Shown here: one piece after another, positions 3,159-20,622 of the stretch
How positions within the stretch are numbered: position 1 is the first letter of the stretch
Layout: each line of letters starts with the position of its first letter
Assembly (NCBI GenBank): GCA_001940725.1
Contig: MDVR01000080.1
Location: forward strand, 1 to 24,155
Source: Candidatus Heimdallarchaeota archaeon LC_2
GTDB lineage: Archaea > Asgardarchaeota > Heimdallarchaeia > Heimdallarchaeales > Kariarchaeaceae
Direction: 5' to 3'
DNA length: 24,155 bases
Program-made: the position numbers and the translations under genes
Notes under the pieces: model-generated
Told to the model about the DNA's origin: nothing
Seen by the model: the letters and a program-made list of their open reading frames with translations, nothing else
The model's database searches: none

Positions 3159-3824
3159 TTATGGAAATTCATTATAATATTTAGTCGGTTTGAATGAACC
3201 TGATAATGCAATTGGAATATTAATGAAGGCTTCAGCATGTTCTGTACTAGCCTGAATTCCTCTTAAATGGGTTCTAGTCTCATGATAATTTGAATAGAAA
3301 CCTTCTCCACCTTTATGGCTTTGAGATTCGTAAACTGCTATAGCTTTCATCCGCATTTCATTCTCTTTTGAAATGTCTATGTAAATATGAGGAAAAGGAA
3401 TCAATACAGTAGTTTCGGTACCCCAGAGACTTTTAACTTGATGAGCCTCTTTGTCAGGATTAGATGTGTGACTTGCCCATTCAACGGCTTCCTTTACAAT
3501 TTCATTTGTTATTTTATGTTCTTTATGATAGTCAAAATCGATATGAGTAATTATTATGTCAGGTTTAAATTCTTGAATAATTCTGACTAATTCGGACTTA
3601 ATGTCCTCGAAATTGGAATTTGTGACATTTCTGAAATTAAGTTGAATTGGATTTGTCTCCAATAATTCACATGCTTTTTCAAATTCACTTACCCTGTTGT
3701 CATCTTTTGTTATTGATACGGCATAGCTTAATTGGTACTTCAAAAGGACTCCGCCCGCAGAGAAAGTTTCATCATCTTGATGTGCAAAAATTGTCATTAG
3801 TTTATTGTTTTTAGCGTTGTTCAT
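3159..3824 (-). CDS. bshB: PIG-L/LmbE-family deacetylase, candidate BshB (GlcNAc-malate deacetylase)
   Basis: This 221-residue protein carries the PIG-L zinc deacetylase signature: AHQDDE at 14-19 (zinc ligands His15 and Asp18, catalytic Asp17) and THIDFDYHKEH at 93-103 with the third ligand His103. The usual proline of AHPDDE is replaced by Gln. Family members remove N-acetyl from GlcNAc conjugates; in bacillithiol synthesis BshB turns GlcNAc-malate into GlcN-malate. The presence of bshA and bshC in the same window is the reason for choosing BshB over other PIG-L functions, such as a bacillithiol-conjugate amidase (Bca) or a deacetylase of other GlcNAc derivatives. The ATG at 3824 lies inside the end of the upstream helicase gene (14-base overlap), so the two are probably cotranscribed and translationally coupled. 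Confidence 0.75.
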   Translation of the reverse strand: MNNAKNNKLMTIFAHQDDETFSAGGVLLKYQLSYAVSITKDDNRVSEFEKACELLETNPIQLNFRNVTNSNFEDIKSELVRIIQEFKPDIIITHIDFDYHKEHKITNEIVKEAVEWASHTSNPDKEAHQVKSLWGTETTVLIPFPHIYIDISKENEMRMKAIAVYESQSHKGGEGFYSNYHETRTHLRGIQASTEHAEAFINIPIALSGSFKPTKYYNEFP

Positions 3825-6800
3825 AATACCATCTCATCTCAATTTCTTCTTCTATACCCCCAAAAATAAACTTGAAATTTTGAGATTTGTTACAATGTTC
3901 GAGGGCATAATATCTTATTTGTGATGCATTTTCTACATTTACTCTCTTGTTGGGAAAATAATCCAAATAATTTCGACTAGCTATTAAGATAACTTTAGAT
4001 TTAGCTCTAGAGGTCAAAACGTTAAATCTGTTTATATCAAAAATAAAATCTTCTTCTGCACTAATCTGATCAGTTGAACTTATTCCTATCGACGCAATAA
4101 TCATTGTTCTATCACTACCTTGGAACTTCTCAACAGAATAAACAGTACTTTTTATGGCATTCATAAATTCCTTTTCTGATAGCAAAGATAAATTCTCATT
4201 CAACAATCTCTCATATAAATTTCGGATGATCAACCTACCTTGAGCATTATGTGGTGCCACGACACCAATTTCATTTTTCCAAAAATTTAACTGATTCTCA
4301 ACTGTTATAGGATTAATCATTTTGAAAAATGCAACAATGATTTCAACTGACATATCACATTCCAGAGGACTTACCGATATTTCGAAATTTTTGTTATGAA
4401 TAATGCTTGATACAACTAAATTCGGATCTAACACAGCTTTCACGTAATTTGGTATATTGTCCGGAACATTCCCCACAATAATCCTATCAGCATTATTTTG
4501 GAAGGCTTTCAAACTTTCATAAAAACCAAGATTACCCGTATAACTTACAATATCACGATGTGATCGATAATTTGTCTTTAATTGCTTAGAGGAAATTTGA
4601 TGACCCGTCCCATAATATTGAAATACGCTTCCAAGTACAATCTCCAAATTTATGGGAGGTTTTATTGGTTGTACCGGTGGAAGCTGGTAATTATCTCCGA
4701 CGAGTACCAATTTAGTTAGATTATCGAGATTCAGATAAACGTGATCTGGAATGTGGAGAGATTCACTTACTTCTTTAGATACTATAGGTTCTTCCTTTTC
4801 AACTTCTGACGGGAATTTTACACTCACTTGAGGTCTGTGGACCATGGTAATACTTGGTAATATTTGATCTACAGGAAGCTGTGATGCCTCATCAATAATT
4901 ATTAAATCGAATGCAAATTCATCAGAATTTACCGCTGAAGGTTTTTTTCCATTAAATCGTAATTTTGTTAATTGGTGAGCATTAGAAAAAATAATCAAAT
5001 CCTCTGTAAAGTGATCTTCAAGTTTCTTGTCATCACTAATAGTGCCTCTTTGTTTGGGATATAGATCCTCATTTAACTTCCAAGTTCCACCCTTATTGCA
5101 CATAAAATCATTAACAAAATCGATATCGTCTTCTCCTAAACCCTCATTACTTACTATTTTTTGGTAACCTGATCTAATAAATAATTTCGCAATTTTTCTC
5201 ACAGGTGTTGGTTGTCCATTTTCATCTACACTCTCACGAAGTTTGTTAACCAATACTTTCATAGCTGGATAAGAAAATGCGGTAATCAAAATTCTGCGAG
5301 GTGGGTTCAAACGATCAGTACGAGTTAGAAATTCGTCAATTAATGCAATTATAGTTTGAGATTTTCCTGTACCTGGCGGTCCATGTATTATCGAAATGGG
5401 TCTGGAAAGAGAGTTTAGAATGGCTTCTTTTTGTGATGGATCAGGATAAGGATAAACTTGGGTATTGAGATTTCCTTGCACTTCTGTTTTATAATTATTA
5501 AGTAATGTAGGTGCAAATAAGTATATTTCTGGTAATAGGTAGAGATTACTTTCTGGGTATTCTAATGATTTCAAAGGTAATAAATTCCAATCAAATGCAA
5601 TTTTCTTTCCTAACCATGAATGACCCAAATTATACAGATTAAGCATTTGAAATAACTTCCTGGACCAAGCATCAAATGAAGTTGGATATAGATACCATTG
5701 ACTAGATATTTCTTTTTCCGTAACTTCTCTAAAATTTTCATATACTCTCACAGTGCTCTCTTGAGTTACAATTTCGTAACAATCATCTAAAGAATTCCAC
5801 GTCATCTGATCTATATTTACGCTCCATGAATATTGGTGAATACTTCCATCTCTCAACTCTGATGGAAGTAAAAGCACTCTACTGCCTTCACTTATTTTCA
5901 TATTAGATGACAAATTTTTCAGTTTAAAAGTGTAGAATCTTCTTTTTTCTGTTGTTCCATCGTGTTCTTGAATATCACTTACTTCACCAGCAGCTAACTT
6001 ACCGATACTGAATTCTGGATACATAGTCCTAATGAAAAGTGCATCATGTTCATCCATAGCTGATGTGAGCTTACTAAACAAAAACCACATGTGTGCAACA
6101 TAATTATAGGTATTTGGTAATCGATTTCTACGAGATATGAAATAATCAGTTGGTTTGGCATATCTGGATATAAGTTCCCGCCCACTCTTTTGAAAATCAA
6201 ATCTTATTCTATCAATAGTTTGAACTTTGTATAGCATTTGTGATTTCAATTCTTTTACTAACTTATATTTATCAGAAATATCAGAGATTGATAAAAGTTC
6301 ATGCCATACTTGAAAATCAACATAGTTAAAGTGATTTCTCCAATATTTTTTCTTGAAAAATCTATTAAATCGTTGTTCAGCTATCGCATGCCACGTATAA
6401 TTAATAATTGCAGGTAATCCAATAGTAGTTTCTACGAAAACTCGAAGATCGTATACCTTCTTATGCTGATGAGGATCTGCAATTCCAGAATCAGTGGGCG
6501 TAAACCATCGAATAATGTAGTAGAATGCATTTCGTGATTCATCATCATCAGTAAAGCTATTTAGATGTCTCTCCAACATCGTCTGTATTGCTTCTAAAAT
6601 TTCTCTGGACCAATAATATATTGCCAATCTTGGGGTATAATATCTCTGTTTACCGTCAATTTCCTCAAAGAAAATAACGAATTGCTCAATAAAATCACAT
6701 ATAATCAATATATCATGTAATATTCTCACACTTTTTTTTGCAAAATTAAATTCATCAGAATCATCTAATCCAGAGTTCACATTGGCATATCCTAAGGTTA

Positions 6801-8334
6801 GAAAATTGTTCTCAGCGATATTTTTTTCAGATAATTTTTCTCCCTTGAGTACAATCTTCAACGAATTAGGCTCATCATCATTCAATTTCCAAAGATTTTC
6901 TAAAGCTTTCAAACATGGATTAACTGTTAAGTCGGTTATTGTAGGGCTAATTTGCTTAATTTCCAGTTTTGCTCTAGCAAGAGGCATTTTCTCTCGAAGC
7001 ATTCTTGACCAAATTGAAATTAGCTTGTTAAAATTATCTGCATATTTGGATGTTTTAGGAACTGAAATACTCAAGTAGTAACTTAAAGCCATGATTCTCT
7101 TGTAAATCGGATCTTCTTCTACATTGACTGTTAATGACATTTCATTCCATATAGGTATGGCAACTGAATGTATAGTTCCTCTATCTGGTTTAATTTCTTT
7201 ATCACTAACAATTGCTTGAGATTTAATTTGTAGTAAAGGTAATTGTGGGTATATTGCCTCGGGGGTTGATCCAATTTGTATATCACTTATTCTTTCGGCT
7301 ACGTCTCCAATGGTATTAAATCCTCTCTGATTAAGTTGTTCAACCATTGATCTAGATGTGTAAGGTAGCAATCGAACGTCCCACTCTTTCCTGTCACCAT
7401 TTTCAGTTACACCTAATGTTGTAATACAATCATTCAAGTAATTACATCTGCCACAAGCAGGTTGAATATTCACTGATGTTTTCTCAACCAAGCATGGGGC
7501 TTGATTTTTCAATTTTTGGATTGCTTTCGCTGTTAGATCAAATAATCTAAATGTCTCATCCCAGCGTAAAATTTCAATCATTGCTTCCAATTCTTCAATT
7601 TCTACCACATAAGTATTTTCAACTTTAGGTAATATCCCATTTGAATCTAGCCGGACATACATTTTATGATTTAGTTTATTATCAAACAAATATTGGTTAA
7701 ATGCTAATGTGTAGAAAGCTAGTTCGACGAACTGTTTCTTTCCAATTGCATCACTTGGAGAGACTTTGATATCTACCATTGAGATACCAACTTTTTCTTT
7801 AATATCTTTCATTGAGAGTTCAATAATTTCTTGATTTTCATTTAAAGTTCTAATTTTATTTTTACTATTATATTCATGTTTTTTCAAAAACATGAGGTCC
7901 GGTCTTAATTTATGTGAGGGGTCCTTTATTGGGATTTTTGTCTTTTCATTAATGATTCCAAGAATCATACGTAAAAATTTTTGTGGAGTCGGAAATTCAT
8001 GTTCTAGTAGGACCTTTGGTGTATTAGAGGTAACATTATCTGCTATATTTAACAATCCTTGTGATGTAAGAGTTGTTTTTACGACTGAACCACTCGGATT
8101 TGATGAAAATACTGCGAAGGATCTTTTATTTATTGATTGGTAAATTTCCTTTTCATACTTTTTTCCAATTTCAAGAATAAATTTTGTATGTCTTCTTGCA
8201 TCTTCCAATTTTTTAATTTCTCTATTTGCAGGGAGGAACCAATCTGGGTCTTTTCTCCCTAAATTAATAAATAATTGACGTTCACAATCAAACTCTGAAA
8301 ATTGAGAAAAGGTTTGTTTATCCAGTTGCCCCAT
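3811..8334 (-). CDS. Dna2-like protein: Fe-S PD-(D/E)XK nuclease fused to SF1 helicase
   Basis: A protein of about 1507 residues. The N-terminal nuclease resembles Cas4/Dna2: a first cysteine in DCERQLF (Cys17), RPDLMF near 144-149, VDIK near 186-189 (catalytic Asp and Lys), a FVELAFYTLAFNQY segment, and a CGRCNYLNDC cluster near 291-300 supplying the other three Fe-S cysteines. A long region of roughly 650 residues without recognised motifs follows. The C-terminal UPF1/Dna2-type helicase has GPPGTGKS (~983), IIDEASQLP (~1143), GDNYQLPP (~1211), NYRSH (~1254), VEKFQGSD (~1400) and NVLTSRAK (~1440). It probably acts in DNA repair, end resection or flap processing. A GTG at 8373 would add 13 residues, but a TATA box at 8364-8370 lies downstream of that GTG, so ATG at 8334 is preferred. 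It overlaps the bshB-like gene by 14 bases. Confidence 0.85.
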   Translation of the reverse strand: MGQLDKQTFSQFSEFDCERQLFINLGRKDPDWFLPANREIKKLEDARRHTKFILEIGKKYEKEIYQSINKRSFAVFSSNPSGSVVKTTLTSQGLLNIADNVTSNTPKVLLEHEFPTPQKFLRMILGIINEKTKIPIKDPSHKLRPDLMFLKKHEYNSKNKIRTLNENQEIIELSMKDIKEKVGISMVDIKVSPSDAIGKKQFVELAFYTLAFNQYLFDNKLNHKMYVRLDSNGILPKVENTYVVEIEELEAMIEILRWDETFRLFDLTAKAIQKLKNQAPCLVEKTSVNIQPACGRCNYLNDCITTLGVTENGDRKEWDVRLLPYTSRSMVEQLNQRGFNTIGDVAERISDIQIGSTPEAIYPQLPLLQIKSQAIVSDKEIKPDRGTIHSVAIPIWNEMSLTVNVEEDPIYKRIMALSYYLSISVPKTSKYADNFNKLISIWSRMLREKMPLARAKLEIKQISPTITDLTVNPCLKALENLWKLNDDEPNSLKIVLKGEKLSEKNIAENNFLTLGYANVNSGLDDSDEFNFAKKSVRILHDILIICDFIEQFVIFFEEIDGKQRYYTPRLAIYYWSREILEAIQTMLERHLNSFTDDDESRNAFYYIIRWFTPTDSGIADPHQHKKVYDLRVFVETTIGLPAIINYTWHAIAEQRFNRFFKKKYWRNHFNYVDFQVWHELLSISDISDKYKLVKELKSQMLYKVQTIDRIRFDFQKSGRELISRYAKPTDYFISRRNRLPNTYNYVAHMWFLFSKLTSAMDEHDALFIRTMYPEFSIGKLAAGEVSDIQEHDGTTEKRRFYTFKLKNLSSNMKISEGSRVLLLPSELRDGSIHQYSWSVNIDQMTWNSLDDCYEIVTQESTVRVYENFREVTEKEISSQWYLYPTSFDAWSRKLFQMLNLYNLGHSWLGKKIAFDWNLLPLKSLEYPESNLYLLPEIYLFAPTLLNNYKTEVQGNLNTQVYPYPDPSQKEAILNSLSRPISIIHGPPGTGKSQTIIALIDEFLTRTDRLNPPRRILITAFSYPAMKVLVNKLRESVDENGQPTPVRKIAKLFIRSGYQKIVSNEGLGEDDIDFVNDFMCNKGGTWKLNEDLYPKQRGTISDDKKLEDHFTEDLIIFSNAHQLTKLRFNGKKPSAVNSDEFAFDLIIIDEASQLPVDQILPSITMVHRPQVSVKFPSEVEKEEPIVSKEVSESLHIPDHVYLNLDNLTKLVLVGDNYQLPPVQPIKPPINLEIVLGSVFQYYGTGHQISSKQLKTNYRSHRDIVSYTGNLGFYESLKAFQNNADRIIVGNVPDNIPNYVKAVLDPNLVVSSIIHNKNFEISVSPLECDMSVEIIVAFFKMINPITVENQLNFWKNEIGVVAPHNAQGRLIIRNLYERLLNENLSLLSEKEFMNAIKSTVYSVEKFQGSDRTMIIASIGISSTDQISAEEDFIFDINRFNVLTSRAKSKVILIASRNYLDYFPNKRVNVENASQIRYYALEHCNKSQNFKFIFGGIEEEIEMRWYYEQR

Positions 8335-8363
8335 ACTATACAATATGTAGATTTTATTTATCA

Positions 8364-8370
8364 ATATATA
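8364..8370 (-). promoter_or_regulatory. TATA box upstream of the nuclease-helicase gene
   Basis: Minus-strand TATATAT centred about 33 bases before ATG 8334 predicts a transcript start only a few bases before the gene. It is the basis for choosing this start. Confidence 0.5.
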
Positions 8371-8587
8371 CACTCTAGTTTAGAATTATAAATTTGCTCA
8401 ATAAGTTTGGAAACCTAAAAAAATTGAGGATTCAGATTTTAAATTTATCAAATCATAAATTTGGATAATCATCTGAAGTATAATTAAAATCTAATTTACA
8501 CTACATTTTTTTTTTAATAAAAAATCTTGTGCGATTTTGATATCTCTAGAACAAAAAAATATGATCGATTGTTATTACTATGAATTA

Positions 8588-10192
8588 ATGACTGTAGATC
8601 CAATTTCTCTGACCATACTTCATAGAAGACTGCAAGGTATTACAGAGGAAATGAGTTTAGTTTTACGAAAAACTGCGTACAGTCCAAATATAAAAGAAAG
8701 AGCTGATTTTTCTTGTGCAATTTTTGATACACAAGGTGATATGGTCGCACAAGCTGAAGCTATTCCTGTTCATCTTGGGAGTATGCCTTTTGTTGCGAAA
8801 CCAATAATCCGTATGTTTCAAGATACATGGCAATCTGGTGATGCCATAATTACAAATTCACCACGTTCTGGTTTTGGAGGAACACATTTACCTGATATTA
8901 CCCTTCTAGCTCCAGTTTTCAATAATGGGGAATTTACCCATTTATTAGCAGCAAGAGCTCATCATGCCGACGTAGGGGGGATGTCTCCCGGTTCATTACC
9001 CGCGCAAAGTACTGAAATATTTCAAGAAGGTTTGATTATTCCTCCAGTTAGACTATACATTGAAGGGAAGGAAAATGTTGATGTTATGAACTTGATTTTG
9101 GAAAATGTGAGAACCCCTTTTGAAAGAAGAGGTGATTTACGTGCTCAGTATTCAGCACTTAGATTAGGAGTGAGACGAATGATTGAATTAACTAATCAAG
9201 AACTTGATTGGGATATTTCCATGATGCAATCTGAATTACATCGAAGGTCAGAAGAAACAACTATTGAAAAATTAAAATCTCTCGGTACCAAAATTAGTTC
9301 ATTTACTGATTATTTAGATTCTGATGGAATTAATGTGGATGATCCTGTCAGAATATCATGTAAAATTACTTTACCTGGAAATGGCACGATTGAATTCGAT
9401 TTTGCTGGTTCTGATGATGAACGAATTGGAAATTGTAATGCTCCATTTTCAGTAACTCAATCTGCTTGTTTCTATATTGTTAGATTATTAGTTGGTGATG
9501 ATGTGTTGACAAATGCAGGATGTTTTCGACCAGTTCATATTATTGCACCAGAAGCTTCAGTTGTAAACCCAACTCCAAACGTTGCTACATCAAGCGCTAA
9601 TACAGAGACATCAAGTCGAATTGTTGATGTCTTGATGGGTGCAATGAACAAAATTATACCCTGGCCAAGCTCCAGCCAAGGTACAATGAATAATTTACTT
9701 ATTGGTGGTATTCATGATGGGAAACCTTGGAGTATTTATGAGACAATTGGAGGAGGAACTGGTGCGGGACCATCCTTTCCAGGTACATCTGCCATTCAAT
9801 CTAATATGACAAACACAGAGAACACCCCAATTGAAGCCTTGGAATTATCATACCCATTAAGGGTGAGAGAATACTCAATCAGAAAAGATTCAGGAGGTAA
9901 AGGTGAATTTAGAGGGGGAGATGGTATCATTCGTGAAATAGAAATATTATCAAACGCTACAATAACTCTTCAAACTGAAAGACGAAGAATAAGTCCATGG
10001 GGTCAAGGACCTGGTGAAACCCATGGAAATAAAGGAATAAATGAAATTTTCGAATTAACAATTAAATCTGATTCTGGGGTTGAAACTTTTGAATGGAGAG
10101 AACTAGATTCAAAAGTGTCTATTTCAAATGTGAAACCAGGCAGCAAAATAAAAATATCAACTCCTGGTGGAGGGGGATTTACGTATGGATAA
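8588..10192 (+). CDS. hyuB: Hydantoinase B / 5-oxoprolinase family subunit (HyuB)
   Basis: The protein (~534 residues from ATG 8588) begins with DPISLTILHRRL and continues with SPNIKERADFSCAIFD, AIPVHLGSMPF, GFGGTHLPDITLLAP, ARAHHADVGGMSPGSLP and a glycine-rich C-terminus ending in PGGGGFTYG. These are the standard landmarks of HyuB, the beta subunit of ATP-dependent N-methylhydantoinase/oxoprolinase/acetone-carboxylase relatives, which with HyuA hydrolyses cyclic amides such as hydantoins or 5-oxoproline. The open frame extends to TTG 8537, but the family normally starts right at this point, so ATG 8588 is preferred. Its partner hyuA is not adjacent: it lies 8.5 kb away on the other strand. 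The substrate cannot be decided from the sequence. Confidence 0.9.
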   Translation: MTVDPISLTILHRRLQGITEEMSLVLRKTAYSPNIKERADFSCAIFDTQGDMVAQAEAIPVHLGSMPFVAKPIIRMFQDTWQSGDAIITNSPRSGFGGTHLPDITLLAPVFNNGEFTHLLAARAHHADVGGMSPGSLPAQSTEIFQEGLIIPPVRLYIEGKENVDVMNLILENVRTPFERRGDLRAQYSALRLGVRRMIELTNQELDWDISMMQSELHRRSEETTIEKLKSLGTKISSFTDYLDSDGINVDDPVRISCKITLPGNGTIEFDFAGSDDERIGNCNAPFSVTQSACFYIVRLLVGDDVLTNAGCFRPVHIIAPEASVVNPTPNVATSSANTETSSRIVDVLMGAMNKIIPWPSSSQGTMNNLLIGGIHDGKPWSIYETIGGGTGAGPSFPGTSAIQSNMTNTENTPIEALELSYPLRVREYSIRKDSGGKGEFRGGDGIIREIEILSNATITLQTERRRISPWGQGPGETHGNKGINEIFELTIKSDSGVETFEWRELDSKVSISNVKPGSKIKISTPGGGGFTYG

Positions 10193-10240
10193 ACCACTAA
10201 ATTTAATATACATAATATACTATACATATATATATAATTG

Positions 10241-10278
10241 TTACAACAAAAAAATGGTGATCGCTAACCCTGTTGTAA
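10241..10278. repeat. Inverted repeat TTACAACA / TGTTGTAA
   Basis: Perfect 8-bp arms at 10241-10248 and 10271-10278 with 22 bases between them, just upstream of the promoter palindrome of the next gene. It may be a regulator site or a hairpin after hyuB. Confidence 0.5.
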
Positions 10279-10290
10279 ATAACTTAAAAA

Positions 10291-10318
10291 AGTATAAAAC
10301 AAAATATAATTTTATACT
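10291..10318 (+). promoter_or_regulatory. Promoter palindrome containing the TATA box
   Basis: Perfect 9-bp inverted repeat: AGTATAAAA at 10291-10299 and TTTTATACT at 10310-10318, with a 10-base AT-rich spacer. The left arm contains a TATAAAA box; transcription would begin near 10322, shortly before ATG 10337. A protein bound here would block TBP, so it is a good candidate operator. Confidence 0.55.
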
Positions 10319-10336
10319 TGATGGGTTTGGGAGTTC

Positions 10337-11668
10337 ATGATGTCATTGGAGATTTGGCAGCAAACAATGCGAGAACAGGAAACCCAAAAATCAGTTGATC
10401 AGTTGAACATCAGTAATCTAGATCTAACAATTCCTGAAGGAGGAGAAAAGGCTCCATTAATACTTGGTATTACTCAATCATCAATAATTCAATCAACCCT
10501 TACAACATACTTAATCGATTTGGGATTCAGAGTAGCTGGACCTTTTGCAAGCATTGACAGTGGAATTCCATTTATTAAAAAGATCTCACCGGATATTATC
10601 ATATTTGATGTAACAAGCAATAAAGAAGAACTTAATCTCTTTATTGAAATATTAAAAAAAGATGAAGTTGAGATTCCAATTTTATTAATTAGTAATGATG
10701 AAGTGTATATAAATTATCCTTTCCAATCAAAGCTAAGATTACCCATTAATCCCCATGATCTTGTGGATGAATTACAGTATCTAAATCAGAATAAGGAAAA
10801 GTTCACACCACTTCATCACACATTAAAGTTCGTAAATAAACTTTTCAGTAGACTTCTTGAGCTCTCACCAAATAATCTTCGTCCACATGTTGAAACAAGT
10901 ATCAACAAAGTAATTTTTGAGTTCTGTTCTAAAAACAATGAATTCTCGAGAATTAGTGAGGAAAGTCTAGCAATAATAATTAAAGATACTTCATTTATGC
11001 AGATTTCTGATCTCATTGAAATATTACAAGAAACCATTCAAAATTTGATTGAAAATTTAAATTTAAAATTTGAATCTAAAATTGGATCTTCATTGATCAA
11101 TGATGCTTTAGAGGCAATAATCATTTCAAGTCCAGATATACCTACATATATTCAAGATTTAATTGCGAAACTAGGGATTGATTCAGGTAAATTTAGACAT
11201 CTTGTGGATGTAATTATTCCAAAACTTGAAGATTTTCCGAAATCATGTTTTGTAGCATTTTTGTCTTTAGGGGACTTAGGGCCTGAACTTGTTACATATG
11301 TCGCGACAGATGATAAGATTTCAAGTGGATTAAATGATGGTGTGGCAGCTCAAATTACCACTCTAGTAGGTCAAGGTAATAGCTATCACACAGGTATTTA
11401 TGGTCCAATTCCAATTCCCACCGCTAATAATATTGTAGCAATGATTTGGAGTAAGATGTTAGGTTCAAATATAAAGGATCATCGAATGGCAGGAACTTCA
11501 TTAAGTGTTGTCGTTATAGGTTTCTATCGGGAATTACTAACCTATTTGCCGTCACATGATTCAATGAAATCAATTTATAGTTTGATGGATGATATTACAC
11601 ATGTCAATGAAGTTAATAAAGATCTTCTCTTCGAGATTCAAGAAAAATTTCTAGACTCTTTTATGTAA
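10337..11668 (+). CDS. Degenerate receiver-domain protein with C-terminal domain of unknown function
   Basis: This 443-residue protein has an N-terminal fold resembling a response-regulator receiver (about residues 39-150): strand LILGIT, helix, strand FRVAGPFAS, then IIIFDVTS with Asp91 at the phosphoacceptor place, and IPILLIS. The acidic pair normally after the first strand is absent (GITQ), and the conserved Lys-Pro near the last strand reads LRLPINP, so this is probably a pseudo-receiver that is not phosphorylated in the usual way. The middle is helical. The C-terminal part contains FLSLGDLGPELVTYV, a segment around GQGNSYHTGIYGPIPIP, and MAGTSLSVVVIGFYRELL; I do not recognise this domain. 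No DNA-binding or kinase domain is visible. Its promoter holds two inverted repeats. The stop is 12 bases from the convergent reductase gene. Confidence 0.75.
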   Translation: MMSLEIWQQTMREQETQKSVDQLNISNLDLTIPEGGEKAPLILGITQSSIIQSTLTTYLIDLGFRVAGPFASIDSGIPFIKKISPDIIIFDVTSNKEELNLFIEILKKDEVEIPILLISNDEVYINYPFQSKLRLPINPHDLVDELQYLNQNKEKFTPLHHTLKFVNKLFSRLLELSPNNLRPHVETSINKVIFEFCSKNNEFSRISEESLAIIIKDTSFMQISDLIEILQETIQNLIENLNLKFESKIGSSLINDALEAIIISSPDIPTYIQDLIAKLGIDSGKFRHLVDVIIPKLEDFPKSCFVAFLSLGDLGPELVTYVATDDKISSGLNDGVAAQITTLVGQGNSYHTGIYGPIPIPTANNIVAMIWSKMLGSNIKDHRMAGTSLSVVVIGFYRELLTYLPSHDSMKSIYSLMDDITHVNEVNKDLLFEIQEKFLDSFM

Positions 11669-11669
11669 T

Positions 11670-11690
11670 ATTAATTTTAATTAAATTAAT
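11670..11690. terminator. Possible bidirectional AT-rich hairpin between convergent genes
   Basis: ATTAATTT at 11670-11677 and AAATTAAT at 11683-11690 form an 8-bp inverted repeat in the short gap, running into the last codons of the reductase gene. The extreme AT content means it may be chance. Confidence 0.25.
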
Positions 11691-12568
11691 AATTCTTTTG
11701 CCAATTGAATACTATGGTCTATTGCTGTATCATAAGAATCAGTTAAACCAGTCACATCACCAATTGCCCATATGTTTTGTATACTAGTCCGAAATTTTGA
11801 ATCGACAATGATATATCCTGATTCATTAAGTTTAATTTTAGAATCTTGGAGAAATTTAGTCGAAGGTTTAGGTTTACCCTCAACAAATAATCCTGATATT
11901 TGGATTTTTTGAGACCCCTGTTCCGACTCAAATGAAACATTTTCCAAAACATCTGACCCCATTGCAACAATCTCTCTTACATTTGTAAAGGTAAGAATAT
12001 TGTCCAAAGAGAAATCTAAATGTTCTGATAGCCACATTAAATACACTTTATTTGCGTGTTGTTTCATAAATTCGGCAGCTCTCCTTGTATATTCATGGGA
12101 ACCAATCACTGCTATATCTTTTCCCCTGTACAATCCCCAATCACATACTGCACAATCAGATATCCCTTTGTGATAAAAATTTGTTTCACCTTCAAAGTCT
12201 AATCTTGGCTGTTTTGCACCTGTTGCAATTACAACTTTCTTAGCGAGGAATTTCTGATGTTTTGTTATTACAGCGATTTCGTCATTGGTTTCAATTGATG
12301 TACAAAGACTGGTCTTATGTTTTACTCCCACCTCTTTTGCCTTTGCGATCATTTCCTCTATATGATCAAGACCGTTGGTACCTTCTGCAATTGATGAAAC
12401 ATTTTGCAAGGCACCTGCTTTTGCAATTTGAGATTCATACGGGGATCCTAGTAACCAAACTTCTAATCCTTTTTCTTTTAATTTTTGAGCAAGAGTGATG
12501 CCGGCAACTCCTGCGCCTATAATTAAATAATCTGTTTGAATATCTGGTGCTGCTGGTCTTTGAAACAC
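11681..12568 (-). CDS. Thioredoxin reductase-like flavoprotein with CAVC redox motif
   Basis: The 295-residue protein has an FAD-binding start (YLIIGAGVAGITLAQKL, 14-30), VVIATGAKQPR (112-122), the redox-active CAVCD at 139-143, and the C-terminal FAD motif IWAIGDVTG. This is the order found in thioredoxin reductases, which pass electrons via flavin to a disulfide. The second nucleotide-binding site is degenerate: the usual GxGxxA reads AVIGSHEYTRRAA (153-165), and the arginine cluster that reads the NADPH 2'-phosphate is not visible. The electron donor may therefore not be NADPH (compare ferredoxin-dependent or deeply rooted thioredoxin reductases). The start is GTG. The gene is divergent from bshC across 129 bases, suggesting a role in thiol redox balance, possibly reducing bacillithiol disulfide or a bacilliredoxin; unlike bacterial YpdA/Bdr it keeps a CxxC. 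Confidence 0.82.
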   Translation of the reverse strand: MFQRPAAPDIQTDYLIIGAGVAGITLAQKLKEKGLEVWLLGSPYESQIAKAGALQNVSSIAEGTNGLDHIEEMIAKAKEVGVKHKTSLCTSIETNDEIAVITKHQKFLAKKVVIATGAKQPRLDFEGETNFYHKGISDCAVCDWGLYRGKDIAVIGSHEYTRRAAEFMKQHANKVYLMWLSEHLDFSLDNILTFTNVREIVAMGSDVLENVSFESEQGSQKIQISGLFVEGKPKPSTKFLQDSKIKLNESGYIIVDSKFRTSIQNIWAIGDVTGLTDSYDTAIDHSIQLAKELLI

Positions 12569-12605
12569 TAAAAAAATTTAGAATATTAAATAAAATAAAG
12601 TTATG

Positions 12606-12628
12606 TTTTTCCGAATAAATTTTTCCGA
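12606..12628. promoter_or_regulatory. Tandem TTTTTCCGA repeats between the reductase and bshC
   Basis: The exact nonamer TTTTTCCGA occurs at 12606-12614 and 12620-12628, 14 bases apart, in the divergent promoter region. It could be a shared regulator site. The evidence is only the repetition and the location. Confidence 0.35.
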
Positions 12629-12655
12629 TAGAACAGAACTTTTTAGATTTGCTTG

Positions 12656-12663
12656 TATAATTA
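12656..12663 (+). promoter_or_regulatory. TATA box of bshC
   Basis: TATAATTA centred near 12660 predicts a start near 12686, about 12 bases before the TTG start of bshC. It also argues against the out-of-frame ATG at 12675 being used. Confidence 0.45.
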
Positions 12664-12697
12664 ATGTTAATATAATGAATTCTCCTCAGAAAATATC

Positions 12698-14335
12698 TTG
12701 AATGATTTGCTAAATCCGAATCATCTGTATGATGAAATTGTCTTATCTGGAAATCAAGTCGATAATTTTTGGGGAGAAGTACCAAATACATTTGAAAATG
12801 TAATCAAGTTGGCAAAGAAACGAATTCCTTCGAATCAGAGAACCGAAGGTGCAAAGGATAAGTTACAGATCCTTAAATCATTTTTAAAGAAATTCCATGT
12901 GGATATGGGGATTTCATCGGATAAAGTAATTAATAATATTGATAACCTAGATAATGGCTCAATTTTAATGGGTCAGCAACCAATTATTTTTGGAGGTCCA
13001 GGGTTTATCGGGAATAAATTTGGATGTTTAATATTTTTAGATAACTTGGCTCATCAGCATGATTTATCATTAAGTCCAGTCTATTTTGTTGGAGATTATG
13101 ATGGATTGCAAAAAGAATTAACTAGAACATATTATCCAAATCCAACATCACACAATGCAGTAATTATTGAATCTGGTGAATTTTTATCTGAAGAAAGTAA
13201 TATTGCGGTTCATGCTGCGAAACTTCCTCCTTCAAGTTGGTTATTAGAAGAATTACAAAATTTAGAAAAAAATTTGCGAAGCTTCAAGAAACAGATCAAG
13301 GGTCAAACAAAATTTCTTTTTGAAGAACGATGGAATCATATATCAACATTATTAAAAACAAGTTTTCTTCATTCTACGACATTATCTGAATGGGCAACAA
13401 AAATATGGGGTATTCTTGCGAATGTCTTAAACGACTTTGGAATAGTCTTCTTACCCACTTCCCATCCTGAGGTAAGAAAATTAGTTGCACCTGAATTTCA
13501 CCGATTTATCAAAAATAGAGAACTCTATGCATCTACATTTCAAAAAACAATGAAGCAAATGCAAGACATGGGTTATAAGCCATCTTTACCTCATAGACAT
13601 AATAATTATTCACCGTTCACTCTGGAATGTGAGGGTGATGAGACTCGTGTGACAACTGAAATAAATTTAAGAGATAATGAAATATGGGCTGAAGGGAAAT
13701 GTCCATGTTGTGATAAAGCCTTCAGTATAAAGGTTACAACAGTTGCTGATCTAGATAAAATAGCAACAAAAATTGGACCCAGAGTTGACACGTCTCAAGC
13801 AATATTTCAAGATTTAATGAATATTCAAATTCGAATTTCGGGACCTGGTGAAATTGCATATTATACTCAAGCAGTTCCTGCTCTCAAAGCAATAGGATTT
13901 AATGTACCAATATTTGTTAAATATAAACGGGCTTTCTATAATACTGATTTTAATGAAAAACTCGGTTCGATGTTACATTCTAGAAAACAACCAAGTTTAC
14001 ATCAACCAACATTATTTGAAATCCTGAGAAAAAGATTTAATGCGATAAAAGAAGAAAGTTCTGAAGGTGTGATAGAGGCTGAAATAGAAATGAAATTATT
14101 TATCAACAATCAATATGATTCACTTCAATCTCATAAACAAAGTATGGATATTCAAAAGTACTTAGGATGGCAATTTGGGAAATTTGATCAATTCAAATTT
14201 GGTCAAGAGGTTTCATGGAGTTGGATTGATTTGGCATTGCAAACGGGTCCTAAAGATTACATAAATACATATTGTCGAATGTATCATAAACACTCCTTGG
14301 TTGGGAGCTTGTATTACATTAATACTTCGATTTAA
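12698..14335 (+). CDS. bshC: BshC-like bacillithiol synthase (cysteine-adding enzyme)
   Basis: The 545-residue length matches bacterial BshC (about 540). Landmarks are MGQQPIIFGGPGFIGNKFG (like GQQ...GGPLY..YK in BshC), followed after a helix by SPVYFVGDYDGLQKEL, in the place of the BshC motif PVFW...EDHD..E; the central part and long C-terminal helices also fit. BshC joins L-cysteine to GlcN-malate, the last step of bacillithiol synthesis, in the cytoplasm. A CPCC cluster in the middle (GKCPCCDKAF) may bind a metal; I cannot say whether bacterial enzymes have it. The active-site region is diverged from the bacterial form, so activity is not certain. The start is TTG 12698; no in-frame ATG precedes it after the upstream stop. 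The stop directly abuts the stop of convergent bshA with no bases between. Confidence 0.82.
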   Translation: MNDLLNPNHLYDEIVLSGNQVDNFWGEVPNTFENVIKLAKKRIPSNQRTEGAKDKLQILKSFLKKFHVDMGISSDKVINNIDNLDNGSILMGQQPIIFGGPGFIGNKFGCLIFLDNLAHQHDLSLSPVYFVGDYDGLQKELTRTYYPNPTSHNAVIIESGEFLSEESNIAVHAAKLPPSSWLLEELQNLEKNLRSFKKQIKGQTKFLFEERWNHISTLLKTSFLHSTTLSEWATKIWGILANVLNDFGIVFLPTSHPEVRKLVAPEFHRFIKNRELYASTFQKTMKQMQDMGYKPSLPHRHNNYSPFTLECEGDETRVTTEINLRDNEIWAEGKCPCCDKAFSIKVTTVADLDKIATKIGPRVDTSQAIFQDLMNIQIRISGPGEIAYYTQAVPALKAIGFNVPIFVKYKRAFYNTDFNEKLGSMLHSRKQPSLHQPTLFEILRKRFNAIKEESSEGVIEAEIEMKLFINNQYDSLQSHKQSMDIQKYLGWQFGKFDQFKFGQEVSWSWIDLALQTGPKDYINTYCRMYHKHSLVGSLYYINTSI

Positions 14336-15457
14336 TTAGCACTTAACTCTACAATCTACTGAATCAAGACATAAAATTGAGTCGTATATATTTTCATATT
14401 CTTTTATAATTTTATCAGTCGAGAATTTCTCTTGAATAACCTCACGACCTTTTTTGCCAAGTTTTTGTCTCAATTGCTCATTAGACATTAATTTGGCTAA
14501 TTGTTCTACAGCATCACTTTTCGAATTGTGATCAAATAATAATCCGCTTTCTCCATGTTTGCATATTTCTGGAATTCCACCTACACTTGACGCCAAAACA
14601 GCAGTTTCTGTTGCCATTGCTTCCGCTATTGTTAAACCAAACGATTCTATTCTACTGGTAGAGGCTAGAATTGAAGCTTTAGATAATAACTTGGGTATGT
14701 CTTTTCGAGCACCGAGAAAATTAACCCGATCTTTAATTTTTAGTTCCCTAGCAACTCTCTGACACACTGGTGAATCTGGTCCATTTCCTACAAGATTTAA
14801 TTTCCACTTTGGGAAATCATCTGCCAATTCTGCAAATATTTGTATCATATATGGGACATTTTTTACTGGTCTAAAATTAGATGCATGCATAATACTTAAT
14901 TCTCTTTCCTCCGACATAGGATAAAATTCATTTGTGTTGATAAAGTTATAAATTGTTTTAACTGAATTCTTTTTGAGATTGAATACCTGTTCAGTCTCCC
15001 TGGCAAGGAAATTAGAAACTGAAGTTATTCCGTTCATATCCTGTATGGCGAGTTGCAAGGTTTCATTATAACTGGGATCTTTACCTAAGGTGTGTGTGTC
15101 CGATCCATGGGTTGTTACAACATTTCTGATTCCGCTCATTTTCTTTGCTAGATATGAAACAACTGCATGGGGTATTGCATAATGAGAATGCATAATATCG
15201 ATATGATGATTTCGAACAATTTCTGCAATTTTAGCAGATGCTTGGATTGTATAAGGAGCTCCAATTTCTTTAAATAATGCATAAGATGGTCTTTCTATTA
15301 AATGAAAAGTAATATTATCTAGCTTATCAAAATCCTTTAGGAAGAATGGTTTTTTGTAAAAAAGAAAATGAACTTCATGTCCTATATTGGCTAGTTCAAT
15401 ACCTAGTCTAGTTGCAATTAGTCCAGATCCTCCCATTGTAGGAAATCCGGTCATCAA
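14336..15457 (-). CDS. bshA: BshA-like glycosyltransferase (GlcNAc-malate synthase)
   Basis: A GT-B fold, GT4-family glycosyltransferase of 373 residues, close to bacterial BshA (about 377). It shows FPTMGGSGLIATRLGIELA at the N-terminus, HSHYAIPHAVVSYLAKKM, TTHGSDTHTLGKDPSY, SVSNFLARET, IMHASNFRPVKN, LVGNGP, FLGARKD, and the ESFGLTIAEAMA nucleotide-sugar site followed by SVGGIPEI. The combination GGSG + HYAIPHA + THG(S/T)D + HxSNFRPVK is specific for BshA, which makes GlcNAc-malate from UDP-GlcNAc and L-malate. TTG 15457 and ATG 15454 are the listed starts, but homologues begin a few residues earlier (MKI...); here IKILMTGFP would need an ATT start at 15464-15466, which has AGGAG (15475-15479) 8 bases ahead. 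It is convergent with bshC and divergent from the E2F-like gene. Confidence 0.9.
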   Translation of the reverse strand: MMTGFPTMGGSGLIATRLGIELANIGHEVHFLFYKKPFFLKDFDKLDNITFHLIERPSYALFKEIGAPYTIQASAKIAEIVRNHHIDIMHSHYAIPHAVVSYLAKKMSGIRNVVTTHGSDTHTLGKDPSYNETLQLAIQDMNGITSVSNFLARETEQVFNLKKNSVKTIYNFINTNEFYPMSEERELSIMHASNFRPVKNVPYMIQIFAELADDFPKWKLNLVGNGPDSPVCQRVARELKIKDRVNFLGARKDIPKLLSKASILASTSRIESFGLTIAEAMATETAVLASSVGGIPEICKHGESGLLFDHNSKSDAVEQLAKLMSNEQLRQKLGKKGREVIQEKFSTDKIIKEYENIYDSILCLDSVDCRVKC

Positions 15458-15474
15458 TATTTTAATGAATGCTT

Positions 15475-15712: not shown

Positions 15713-16072
15713 GTGATAATTTTGAAACTTGAAGAAATTGCTAGAAAATCCATCGAAATCATAAAGGAACGGGGTGGTGAAGGGGTAACGACCGCTGAAT
15801 TGGCAAGAAGATTGAATGTGCCTAAACGACGTGTTTATGATGTGAAGGCTATCATGAAAGCAGCTAATCTAATTACTACAACACGAGATCGTGATGGCAC
15901 AAAAATATTCTGGAATGTAAGTATTGAAAGTAGTTCATCTACAGAAATTAGTAGAATTCGTTCAAATAAAATAAAAATAACTACGACAGGGTTCATTACT
16001 AATGTTTCAAATAGAGGGACTGAAGTAATAATTGAAGGTACAAGTCCAAGTATGTCTATTGAACCATTGTAA
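15713..16072 (+). CDS. E2F/DP-like winged-helix DNA-binding protein
   Basis: A 119-residue protein whose first ~70 residues match the E2F/DP winged helix: helix 1 LEEIARKSIEIIKERG, then VTTAELARRLNV, the recognition helix PKRRVYDVKAIMKAANLI (37-54) and a wing ending in KIFW. Eukaryotic E2F has KRRIYDITNVLEGIGLI and HIQW in the same order, and RRxYD makes its base contacts. The rest (71-119) has no dimerisation or marked-box domain that I can see and looks like short strands. It is probably a small homodimeric transcription regulator. GTG 15713 is chosen because of the TATA box; TTG 15722 is possible. It is divergent from bshA, so it may regulate that gene; this is inference. The stop is 15 bases from the convergent LigB-like gene. 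Confidence 0.8.
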   Translation: MIILKLEEIARKSIEIIKERGGEGVTTAELARRLNVPKRRVYDVKAIMKAANLITTTRDRDGTKIFWNVSIESSSSTEISRIRSNKIKITTTGFITNVSNRGTEVIIEGTSPSMSIEPL

Positions 16073-18642: not shown

Positions 18643-20622
18643 CTAATTAATTTTATTTGCAATTATGAATCCAAATTGATTTAATTCTGCGCTCCAGTTT
18701 CTAGGAATCCATGTTGTAGTGTCTAGTTGATTAATTATAAGGGGTCCATTCTCTTTCCAGTTTGAACCAAGGTCATCTTTTCTGTAGACTGGAGCTTCTT
18801 CTTCATAACCAAGTACTTTTGTGTAGTTCAACGGTTTTGGTTTGTTTTTCGATTCTAATTTTGGAATTATGGGATCATCATGAGGAATGATGAGAGTAGC
18901 TCTAATAGCTACTAATTCAATAGGCTCATTTTTTGCAACAAATCCATACTTTTCTTTATGTAAATCCAAAAATCCAGTTTTAATTTCATCTTTATCAGAA
19001 CTAAATTTAACCGTTAACTCATAAGATTGACCTTTAAACCTCATCGATAAAAATCTCTTAAGAATTCTATCTGTTAAATCAAGACCATCAGTTTGTGCTA
19101 AGTCAAGTGCATCATCCTCCAGATTTGTATAATACCTATGAAGCGTGGGAATATCAATTGCGTCCCATGAAGTAACCAATCCTTTTGATGTATCGTAACT
19201 ATAATCAGCTCCAATTAGACCCATTGCTGCCCAAGCGCCTGGTATTGGCGGAATTACAACTTGAGAAATGTGCATAAGCTCGGCTAATTCACACGCATGA
19301 ACTGGACCAGCTCCGCCAAAGGCTAATAATTTAAATTTTCGTGGATCTAATCCTCGTTGAGTTGTTACAGATCTCAAAGCTGCAGATATATTTTCATGAA
19401 AAATTCTCCGAGATCCAATTATGGCATCAGTTTTAGTAATATTCATACTATCAGCAAGATTTTCCATTGCATCTTCAGCTAGTGATTTCTTCATGATTAG
19501 TTCACCTCCTGCCAAGCTTTCTGCCAAAACTCCAAAAGATAAATCTGCATCTGTAACTGTTGGTATCAATCCACCTGCGTCATACGCCACAGGACCTGGA
19601 GCGGCACCCGCACTTTCTGGACCAACCTGTAATAATCCCGAAACAACTTGAATTAAACTACCTCCTCCAGCTCCAATTGTTTCTACATCGATTGATGGAG
19701 TTGAAATGGGTAATCCTCCAACTTTTAAAGATTGAAAAGATGCGTTTCTACCTTCAACAATAGAGGCAACATCGGTACTAGTCCCACCGATATCTAGAGT
19801 TAATAAATTAGGAATATTTAATACTCGAGAAGTAAATTCCGCTGCTTGGATTCCTCCAGCCAAACCTGAAAATAATGTATGAACTGGAAATTCTGCAATA
19901 GTTTTCCCTCTTGCTAGACCTTTTGATGATTTCATTACAGCAAATATCTCAGATAATTTTTCCTCTTGAATTTTTGATGCCAAATTTGCCAAGTATTTCT
20001 TCATTAATGGTTTTACATATGCATCCATTACTGTGGTACTCATTCTTTCATATTCGCGATATTCAGGGAGAATGACTGAAGAAACAGAAATAATTTGATC
20101 GCCTAGACTTTCAGCAATTTTTATTTCATGAATTGGATTTAGAAATGAAAACAAGGTGCAGATGGCTATACTATCATACTCTTTTTCTGACATTTCTTTT
20201 ATTAATTCCACAATTGTTGACACATCAAGAGGTATTTCTATTGTTCCATCAGCAATAATCCTTTCATCAATTTCAAATCGTAATTCTGCTGGAACCAATG
20301 GTGAGGGTCTCGTTGGATATAAAGAATAAATATTCTCCCTATTTTGTCGACCAATTTCTATTATATCTTTGAATCCTTTTGTTGTAATCAAAGCAACTTT
20401 TGCACCTTTCCGTTCGATTACTGCGTTAGTAGCAACAGTAGAACCATGCAATACTTCCTTTACAAATCCTAATCTGCGTAATGACGTAAGTACTGCTAAT
20501 AATGGATTATGGGGAGTTGACGGTACTTTTATTACAATTATCTCATCTTGTGAAATTGCAATTGTATCGGTAAATGTACCTCCAGTATCAATTCCTGCAA
20601 TAATCCAATTGTTATTTTCCAC
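18643..20622 (-). CDS. hyuA: Hydantoinase A / 5-oxoprolinase family subunit (HyuA)
   Basis: The 659-residue protein starts with the actin-like ATP-binding motif IAGIDTGGTFTDTI, followed by HGSTVATNAVIERKGAKVALITTKGFKDIIEIGRQ (shown only as a landmark around residues 60-95), the second phosphate motif TLDIGGTSTDVASI, GAGGGSLIQV, GPESAGAAPGP and LLAFGGAGPVHACELA. These are the classic landmarks of HyuA, the ATP-using alpha subunit that works with HyuB on cyclic amides. Length is in the normal range (650-700). The start is GTG 20622, placed four codons before the glycine motif region as in homologues; a TATA-like TTATAA at 20661-20667 (minus strand) lies about 42 bases ahead. It heads a minus-strand run with the thiamine-binding gene, the amidohydrolase and the LigB-like gene. 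Confidence 0.93.
   Translation of the reverse strand: MENNNWIIAGIDTGGTFTDTIAISQDEIIVIKVPSTPHNPLLAVLTSLRRLGFVKEVLHGSTVATNAVIERKGAKVALITTKGFKDIIEIGRQNRENIYSLYPTRPSPLVPAELRFEIDERIIADGTIEIPLDVSTIVELIKEMSEKEYDSIAICTLFSFLNPIHEIKIAESLGDQIISVSSVILPEYREYERMSTTVMDAYVKPLMKKYLANLASKIQEEKLSEIFAVMKSSKGLARGKTIAEFPVHTLFSGLAGGIQAAEFTSRVLNIPNLLTLDIGGTSTDVASIVEGRNASFQSLKVGGLPISTPSIDVETIGAGGGSLIQVVSGLLQVGPESAGAAPGPVAYDAGGLIPTVTDADLSFGVLAESLAGGELIMKKSLAEDAMENLADSMNITKTDAIIGSRRIFHENISAALRSVTTQRGLDPRKFKLLAFGGAGPVHACELAELMHISQVVIPPIPGAWAAMGLIGADYSYDTSKGLVTSWDAIDIPTLHRYYTNLEDDALDLAQTDGLDLTDRILKRFLSMRFKGQSYELTVKFSSDKDEIKTGFLDLHKEKYGFVAKNEPIELVAIRATLIIPHDDPIIPKLESKNKPKPLNYTKVLGYEEEAPVYRKDDLGSNWKENGPLIINQLDTTTWIPRNWSAELNQFGFIIANKIN

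What the first reader, a model, noticed from the sequence alone, without database searches (positions are those of the whole stretch)
3159..15457. Candidate complete bacillithiol pathway (BshA, BshB, BshC) in an archaeon
The window holds homologues for all three steps of bacillithiol synthesis. BshA (14336-15457) has highly specific motifs; BshC (12698-14335) has the right length and GQQ/GGP landmarks; the PIG-L protein (3159-3824) fits BshB. bshA and bshC are tail-to-tail with no intervening base. Bacillithiol is established for Firmicutes and some other bacteria; a full set beside TFB and archaeal promoters suggests that some (probably Asgard) archaea make bacillithiol or a variant thiol. 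The BshC active-site region is diverged, so the product may differ.
Basis: partly seen in the sequence, partly recalled or inferred. Interest (0 to 1): 0.85.

Follow-up and report, generated by a model that had tools for sequence, protein, structure and literature searches.

The report
Bacillithiol-type thiol pathway in Asgard archaea
This archaeal contig carries relatives of all three enzymes with which bacteria make the protective thiol bacillithiol; the same three genes keep company in many other Asgard archaea and some Bathyarchaeia, so archaea close to the ancestry of our own cells probably make this thiol or a near relative.

The parts
12698..14335 (+). Archaeal-type BshC: predicted cysteine-adding enzyme (last step), 545 aa, TTG start
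13628..13711 (+). Zinc-ribbon-like insert of BshC (C311 ... C335-x2-C338, aspartate at 314)
   Evidence: metal binding is inferred
14336..15457 (-). BshA: predicted UDP-GlcNAc:L-malate GT4 glycosyltransferase (first step), 373 aa
   Evidence: TIGR03999 348.2 bits, cut-off 273.7; [quoted passage not shown]
3159..3824 (-). PIG-L family protein, predicted GlcNAc-malate deacetylase (BshB role), 221 aa
   Evidence: PF02585 63.1 bits; H15, D17, D18, E19 and H103 invariant in 21 linked PIG-Ls; one clade with linked PIG-Ls, 100/98
11681..12568 (-). Thioredoxin-reductase-like flavoprotein with CAVC motif, divergently next to bshC; candidate thiol-disulfide reductase
   Evidence: TIGR01292 158.3 bits, cut-off 343.45; same gene next to bshC in 8 of 12 clade loci that have upstream sequence, window included; CxxC in 11 of 11
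8537..10192 (+). HyuB-like (hydantoinase B/oxoprolinase) protein recurrently near bshC; role unknown
   Evidence: PF02538 586.5 bits; near bshC in 7 of 12 clade loci, window included
18643..20622 (-). HyuA-like (hydantoinase A/oxoprolinase) protein, possible partner of HyuB; role unknown
   Evidence: PF01968 247 bits; also in L002, L007, L025
500..1147 (-). Phosphoserine-phosphatase-like HAD protein; next to the PIG-L gene in four relatives (possible serine/cysteine supply)
   Evidence: TIGR01491 128.9 bits, cut-off 151.9; adjacency in L005, L008, L011, L012

Best explanation
The contig comes from a Heimdallarchaeia-type Asgard archaeon (probably Kariarchaeaceae) that makes bacillithiol, or a molecule with the same cysteinyl-glucosaminyl core, by an archaeal version of the three-step pathway. 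BshA joins UDP-GlcNAc to L-malate; the PIG-L protein removes the acetyl group with a metal-dependent active site; the archaeal BshC couples cysteine to the freed amine in a class-I-synthetase-like fold. The neighbouring CxxC flavoprotein probably keeps this thiol or a partner protein reduced. Shown here: homology, predicted fold, conserved residues, conserved linkage across two archaeal phyla, co-occurrence with DinB proteins. Inferred: substrates, product, the reductase role.
For: BshA over the curated equivalog cut-off, keeping the UDP-GlcNAc residues named for S. aureus BshA with one T to S. BshC fold and shared residues. Linkage: 91 of 227 Asgard genomes hold BshC (E 1e-3) and BshA (E 1e-50), 85 on one contig, 84 within 5 kb, 71 within 500 b; without the 9 genomes of bacterial type, 82, 78, 77 and 71. 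Of the 79 that also have the linked-type PIG-L it lies within 1 kb of bshC or bshA in 52, within 30 kb in 12, on another contig in 15. Linked PIG-Ls are one clade over Heimdall-, Thor- and Bathyarchaeota. Neighbours: GlmM in six of six Thor loci; DinB_2-type genes in three of four Bathyarchaeal loci. DinB_2 in 102 of 120 BshC genomes and 14 of 107 others. bshA-C gene content correctly predicted bacillithiol in Thermus and, with nmbA, N-methyl-bacillithiol in Polaribacter (PMC6282198, passages).
Against: BshC and PIG-L miss their equivalog cut-offs. In all ten genomes of the window's clade with a linked PIG-L, another PIG-L scores higher against BshB1, e.g. 97.0 vs 53.0 bits in G007. Two arginines invariant in the 27 bacterial-side BshC rows align with Y409 and V505 (alignment there uncertain). 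29 Asgard genomes have BshC without BshA and 7 the reverse, so BshC can have another partner. The DinB association is not corrected for ancestry and is weak in group g (7 of 14). The malate site of BshA could not be checked (papers not held). [quoted passage not shown] In the window the PIG-L gene lies 8.9 kb from bshC.
Confidence: 0.72

Rival explanations
1. The set makes a different thiol: BshA uses another acceptor than malate, or BshC another amino acid, giving a new cysteinyl-glucosaminide relative of bacillithiol and mycothiol.
For: Archaeal BshC forms its own clade with long stem branches (1.55 and 1.61) and side-specific residues. In other Asgards BshC occurs without BshA: GT2-bshB1-bshC clusters in 14 genomes. 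Thor BshA (L013) and three Bathyarchaeal BshAs carry EGMP and ESAP where the window has ESFG.
Against: The window BshA keeps ESFG and the listed GlcNAc residues and passes the BshA equivalog cut-off.
Confidence: 0.18
2. The cluster is not a thiol pathway; the enzymes serve cell-surface glycan or another amide-forming pathway that uses the same folds.
For: Product unknown; hydantoinase-type proteins recur in the neighbourhood; 29 of 120 Asgard genomes with BshC have no BshA at E 1e-50.
Against: Three-gene linkage over two phyla, DinB co-occurrence, GlmM, DinB-type and flavoprotein neighbours.
Confidence: 0.07
3. The contig is chimeric or bacterial contamination.
For: Short contig from an unnamed source; BshA is best known from bacteria.
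Against: A TFIIB-type factor on the same contig; BshA, E2F-like and HyuA in the same order and strands in L025; the BshC/BshA pair lies on 3.33-Mb and 3.16-Mb contigs of other Asgard genomes.
Confidence: 0.01

Closest known systems
Bacterial bacillithiol pathway (BshA, BshB1/BshB2, BshC)
   Same: Same three enzyme superfamilies in the same expected order of action; BshA over the equivalog cut-off; BshC of the same predicted fold.
   Different: BshC in a separate archaeal clade with a zinc-ribbon-like insert; deacetylase in a separate archaeal PIG-L clade below the BshB1 cut-off; a CxxC flavoprotein beside bshC that is not YpdA/Bdr by score.
Mycothiol pathway (MshA, MshB, MshC, MshD)
   Same: Also GT4, PIG-L deacetylase and a synthetase-fold cysteine ligase (recalled).
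   Different: Window GT4 scores 68.5 bits to MshA against 348.2 to BshA; no MshD match among the nine window proteins scanned.
Class I lysyl-tRNA synthetase (1IRX)
Thioredoxin reductase and YpdA/Bdr
   Same: The flanking flavoprotein is of this superfamily and keeps a CxxC.
   Different: 158.3 bits to TrxR (cut-off 343.45) and 30.8 to YpdA (cut-off 339.9): over neither cut-off.

Membership tests
BshA | NCBIfam TIGR03999 equivalog cut-off | tested here: met
   348.2 vs 273.7 bits
BshA | UDP-GlcNAc residues named for S. aureus BshA (ESFG, H118, N171, T120, K209, E288) | tested here: met
   window E271-S-F-G274, H117, N171, S119 (T to S), K199, E279, read by me from the PDB alignments against residues named in PMC10361700 (passages)
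BshA | Malate-binding site | not tested
   structure papers not held
BshC | NCBIfam TIGR03998 equivalog cut-off | tested here: not met
   75.4 vs 265.8 bits; positive control L072 386.5 bits
BshC superfamily (PF10079) | Pfam gathering score | tested here: met
   70.6 vs 27 bits
BshC | Fold of solved BshC | tested here: met
BshC | Residues conserved across the family | tested here: met
   all 18 columns shared by both sides at 80% or more keep their residue in the window
BshC | C-terminal domain PF24850 precomputed for most listed relatives of L072 BshC | tested here: inconclusive
   not listed for the window and not precomputed for its relatives, but no bacterial BshC was run through the scan
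BshB1 | NCBIfam TIGR04001 equivalog cut-off | tested here: not met
   53.7 vs 182.5 bits; positive controls L072 222.5 and L056 202.7
BshB (as a function) | Metal site of PIG-L deacetylases (H, D, H; ligand roles recalled) | tested here: met
   H15, D18, H103 and D17 invariant in 21 linked PIG-Ls
BshB (as a function) | Linked to bshA/bshC and co-inherited with them | tested here: met
   within 30 kb in 64 of 79 genomes; one clade
Bacillithiol producer | Thiol detected in cells | not testable with these tools
   needs mass spectrometry
Bacillithiol disulfide reductase YpdA/Bdr (for the flavoprotein) | TIGR04018 cut-off | tested here: not met
   30.8 vs 339.9 bits

The most novel reading that the evidence does not exclude
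Archaea have their own anciently separated branch of cysteinyl-glucosaminide thiol synthesis, with a zinc-ribbon BshC and its own deacetylase clade, kept across Asgards and Bathyarchaeia; and at least one Asgard lineage (probably two) has replaced BshA by a GT2 glycosyltransferase and so makes a thiol with a different aglycone that has not been described.
Probability: 0.35. Interest if true: 0.87.

Novelty: new variant of a known kind. Interest (0 to 1): 0.7.

Why it matters
[quoted passage not shown]), and a 2025 survey found no archaeon with the pathway (PMC12719100, passages). If Heimdall-, Thor- and Bathyarchaeia make it, the thiol chemistry of the archaeal relatives of eukaryotes becomes predictable and testable, and it would not be glutathione-like. 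The catalysis of BshC was unsolved as of a 2015 review, with no activity shown in vitro (PMC4360819, passages); an archaeal clade with a different domain make-up gives new enzymes on which to solve it.

Tried and rejected
Mycothiol reading: rejected on BshA vs MshA scores. Chimera: rejected. Naming the PIG-L BshB by score alone: rejected. Naming the flavoprotein YpdA: rejected. Structure papers for BshA and BshC (PMC5954418, PMC6511738, PMC4303302) are not held, so ligand contacts of malate and of BshC substrates stay unchecked. A BshA tree with bacteria was not made: none of the organism names shown for the 120 listed BshA hits is bacterial, and most hits carry none. M20 peptidase, LigB-like, amidohydrolase, thiamine-binding-protein-like and TFIIB neighbours showed no clear tie to the pathway. 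YpdA and bacilliredoxin were not searched across genomes. The DinB statistic is not corrected for shared ancestry.

Full report
Check of the observation. BshA passes its curated equivalog cut-off with a wide margin (348.2 vs 273.7 bits; next family 135.7). BshC passes Pfam's superfamily score (70.6 vs 27) but not the equivalog cut-off (75.4 vs 265.8). The PIG-L protein is a PIG-L (63.1 bits) with weak BshB1 and BshB2 scores (53.7 and 48.9).

BshB. By score the case is weak: in 16 genomes no protein passes the BshB1 cut-off, and in all ten genomes of the window's clade that hold a linked PIG-L another PIG-L scores higher (G007 97.0 vs 53.0; G002 92.9 vs 50.5); in G193, G197 and G078 the linked protein is the only match at E 1e-5. 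The tree restores the case: the linked PIG-Ls (window, nine clade relatives, two of group b, six Thor, three Bathy, four of group d; 25 rows) form one clade (100/98) that holds none of the 31 other PIG-Ls chosen from the same and other Asgard genomes, nor the eight BshB1-type rows. The deacetylase motif and H103 are invariant in 21 linked proteins. So one PIG-L lineage has stayed with bshA and bshC across two archaeal phyla.

Distribution and linkage. The BshC profile finds 120 of 227 Asgard genomes (E 1e-3), BshA at E 1e-50 98 of 227, 89 over the cut-off, the PIG-L profile at E 1e-25 106 of 227. 91 genomes have BshC and BshA; 85 share a contig, 84 lie within 5 kb, 71 within 500 b. Nine of the 91 are of the bacterial type; without them the numbers are 82, 78, 77 and 71. 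79 of the 91 also match the PIG-L profile: within 1 kb of bshC or bshA in 52, within 30 kb in 12, on another contig in 15. 29 genomes have BshC without BshA and 7 BshA without BshC. Two Asgard genomes with the pair are essentially one contig each (3,326,783 and 3,157,242 bases). In the class of a Bathyarchaeial locus 26 of 201 sampled genomes match the BshC profile, 15 of them at E below 1e-90 and 11 weakly or as fragments.

Functional neighbours. Six of six Thor loci carry near the cluster a gene of the family of archaeal phosphoglucosamine mutase GlmM (clustering; one scanned, 524.4 bits, cut-off 439), on the route to UDP-GlcNAc. Three of four Bathyarchaeal loci carry a DinB_2-type gene, next to bshA in two (one scanned, PF12867 41.3 bits). 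DinB_2, the superfamily of bacterial thiol-S-transferases (PMC4360819 passages), occurs in 116 of 227 Asgard genomes: 102 of the 120 with BshC and 14 of the 107 without (Fisher p 1e-29, not corrected for ancestry). It is present in 10 of 11, 24 of 24, 41 of 46, 7 of 7, 7 of 9, 12 of 12 and 7 of 14 genomes of groups a, b, c, d, e, f and g. In the window's own clade a TrxR-like flavoprotein with CxxC stands next to bshC in 8 of 12 loci with upstream sequence; a more distant relative stands next to the PIG-L gene in two group-b loci. HyuB-like and HyuA-like proteins recur nearby without a clear role.

BshA. Residues named for S. aureus BshA in PMC10361700 (passages) are kept in the window (ESFG, H, N, K, E; one T to S; my reading of the alignments). 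The Thor BshA in the alignment (L013) reads EGMP and three Bathy BshAs ESAP at that motif, so sugar use may differ there.

Other Asgard versions. (e) Nine genomes have bacterial-type BshC and BshA; in seven these lie on one contig with BshB1 between them over its cut-off. In L072 bshC, bshB1 and bshA are all over their equivalog cut-offs (386.5 and 222.5 bits; 423.5); the same gene order is read in L073-L075. This speaks against the statement that no archaeon holds the complete pathway (PMC12719100, passages), which rested on BLAST in RefSeq with Chlorobaculum queries, E 1e-20, 25% identity. (g) Fourteen genomes have BshC but no BshA over cut-off; a homologue of one GT2 glycosyltransferase is found in 14 of 14 directly before bshB1-bshC, cut by a contig end in two, and 13 of 14 have BshB1 over the cut-off. 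(f) Twelve genomes have BshC, none with BshA over cut-off, all with BshB1-like proteins below cut-off; in four of four clustered loci an aminotransferase-family gene stands beside bshC (one scanned); nine of 12 have a weaker GT2 homologue elsewhere. None of six genomes of groups a to d searched had a GT2 match at E 1e-25.

Literature. Searches for bacillithiol with archaea and BshA, with Asgard, with BshC and archaea, with heimdall and with bathyarch (of which 20 of 197 listed) gave one review that proposes archaeal bacillithiol from 39 BshA and 39 BshC InterPro hits, mostly Asgard (PMC7278568, passages of section 13), and the 2025 survey that found none. The passages seen do not describe the deacetylase, the linkage, an archaeal BshC clade or the GT2 variant; only open-licence PMC papers were searched, and mostly listings and passages were seen.

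Verdict. A real, conserved archaeal bacillithiol-type pathway, very probably for a cysteinyl-glucosaminyl thiol; bacillithiol itself is the likeliest product but unproven.

Noticed in passing
L072:7162-10564, L073-L075 (G067-G075): Bacterial-type bshC-bshB1-bshA operon in another Asgard group, all three over equivalog cut-offs in L072; its BshC lies inside the bacterial side of the tree, so probably acquired from bacteria.
   Followed up: partly
L056:1409-4736 and L057-L064: GT2 glycosyltransferase, BshB1 and archaeal BshC side by side without BshA: possible new thiol with another aglycone.
   Followed up: partly
L065, L066, L068, L070: Archaeal BshC beside an aminotransferase-family gene, without BshA or linked PIG-L; the same gene family stands next to bshC in Thor loci.
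   Followed up: partly
L024:12820-13852, L015:3582-4606, L014:14547-15029: DinB_2-type genes (thiol-S-transferase superfamily; one scanned) next to bshA in L024 and L015 and two genes away in L014.
   Followed up: partly
L088:5193-6575 and five other Thor loci: Archaeal phosphoglucosamine mutase GlmM family gene near the bsh cluster.
   Followed up: partly
window 15455-15466, minus strand: bshA has no ATG/GTG/TTG where relatives start; the frame upstream reads IKILMTGFPT, so an ATT start three codons before the TTG is possible.
   Followed up: partly
window 3811-8373: 1520-aa SF1 helicase-like protein between the PIG-L gene and the rest, with weak likeness to defence proteins (MkoA 99.7 bits).
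   Followed up: partly
window 15713-16072: Small protein with an E2F/DP-type winged helix (PF02319, 35.7 bits), conserved near the set in L002 and L025; proteins of similar type near bshC in group d.
   Followed up: no
L013 and L014/L018/L024 BshA: BshA motif ESFG reads EGMP in Thor and ESAP in Bathy; the sugar donor may differ.
   Followed up: no
G288:C1: One Bathyarchaeial-class genome has two BshC matches on one contig, one with an in-frame TAG.
   Followed up: no
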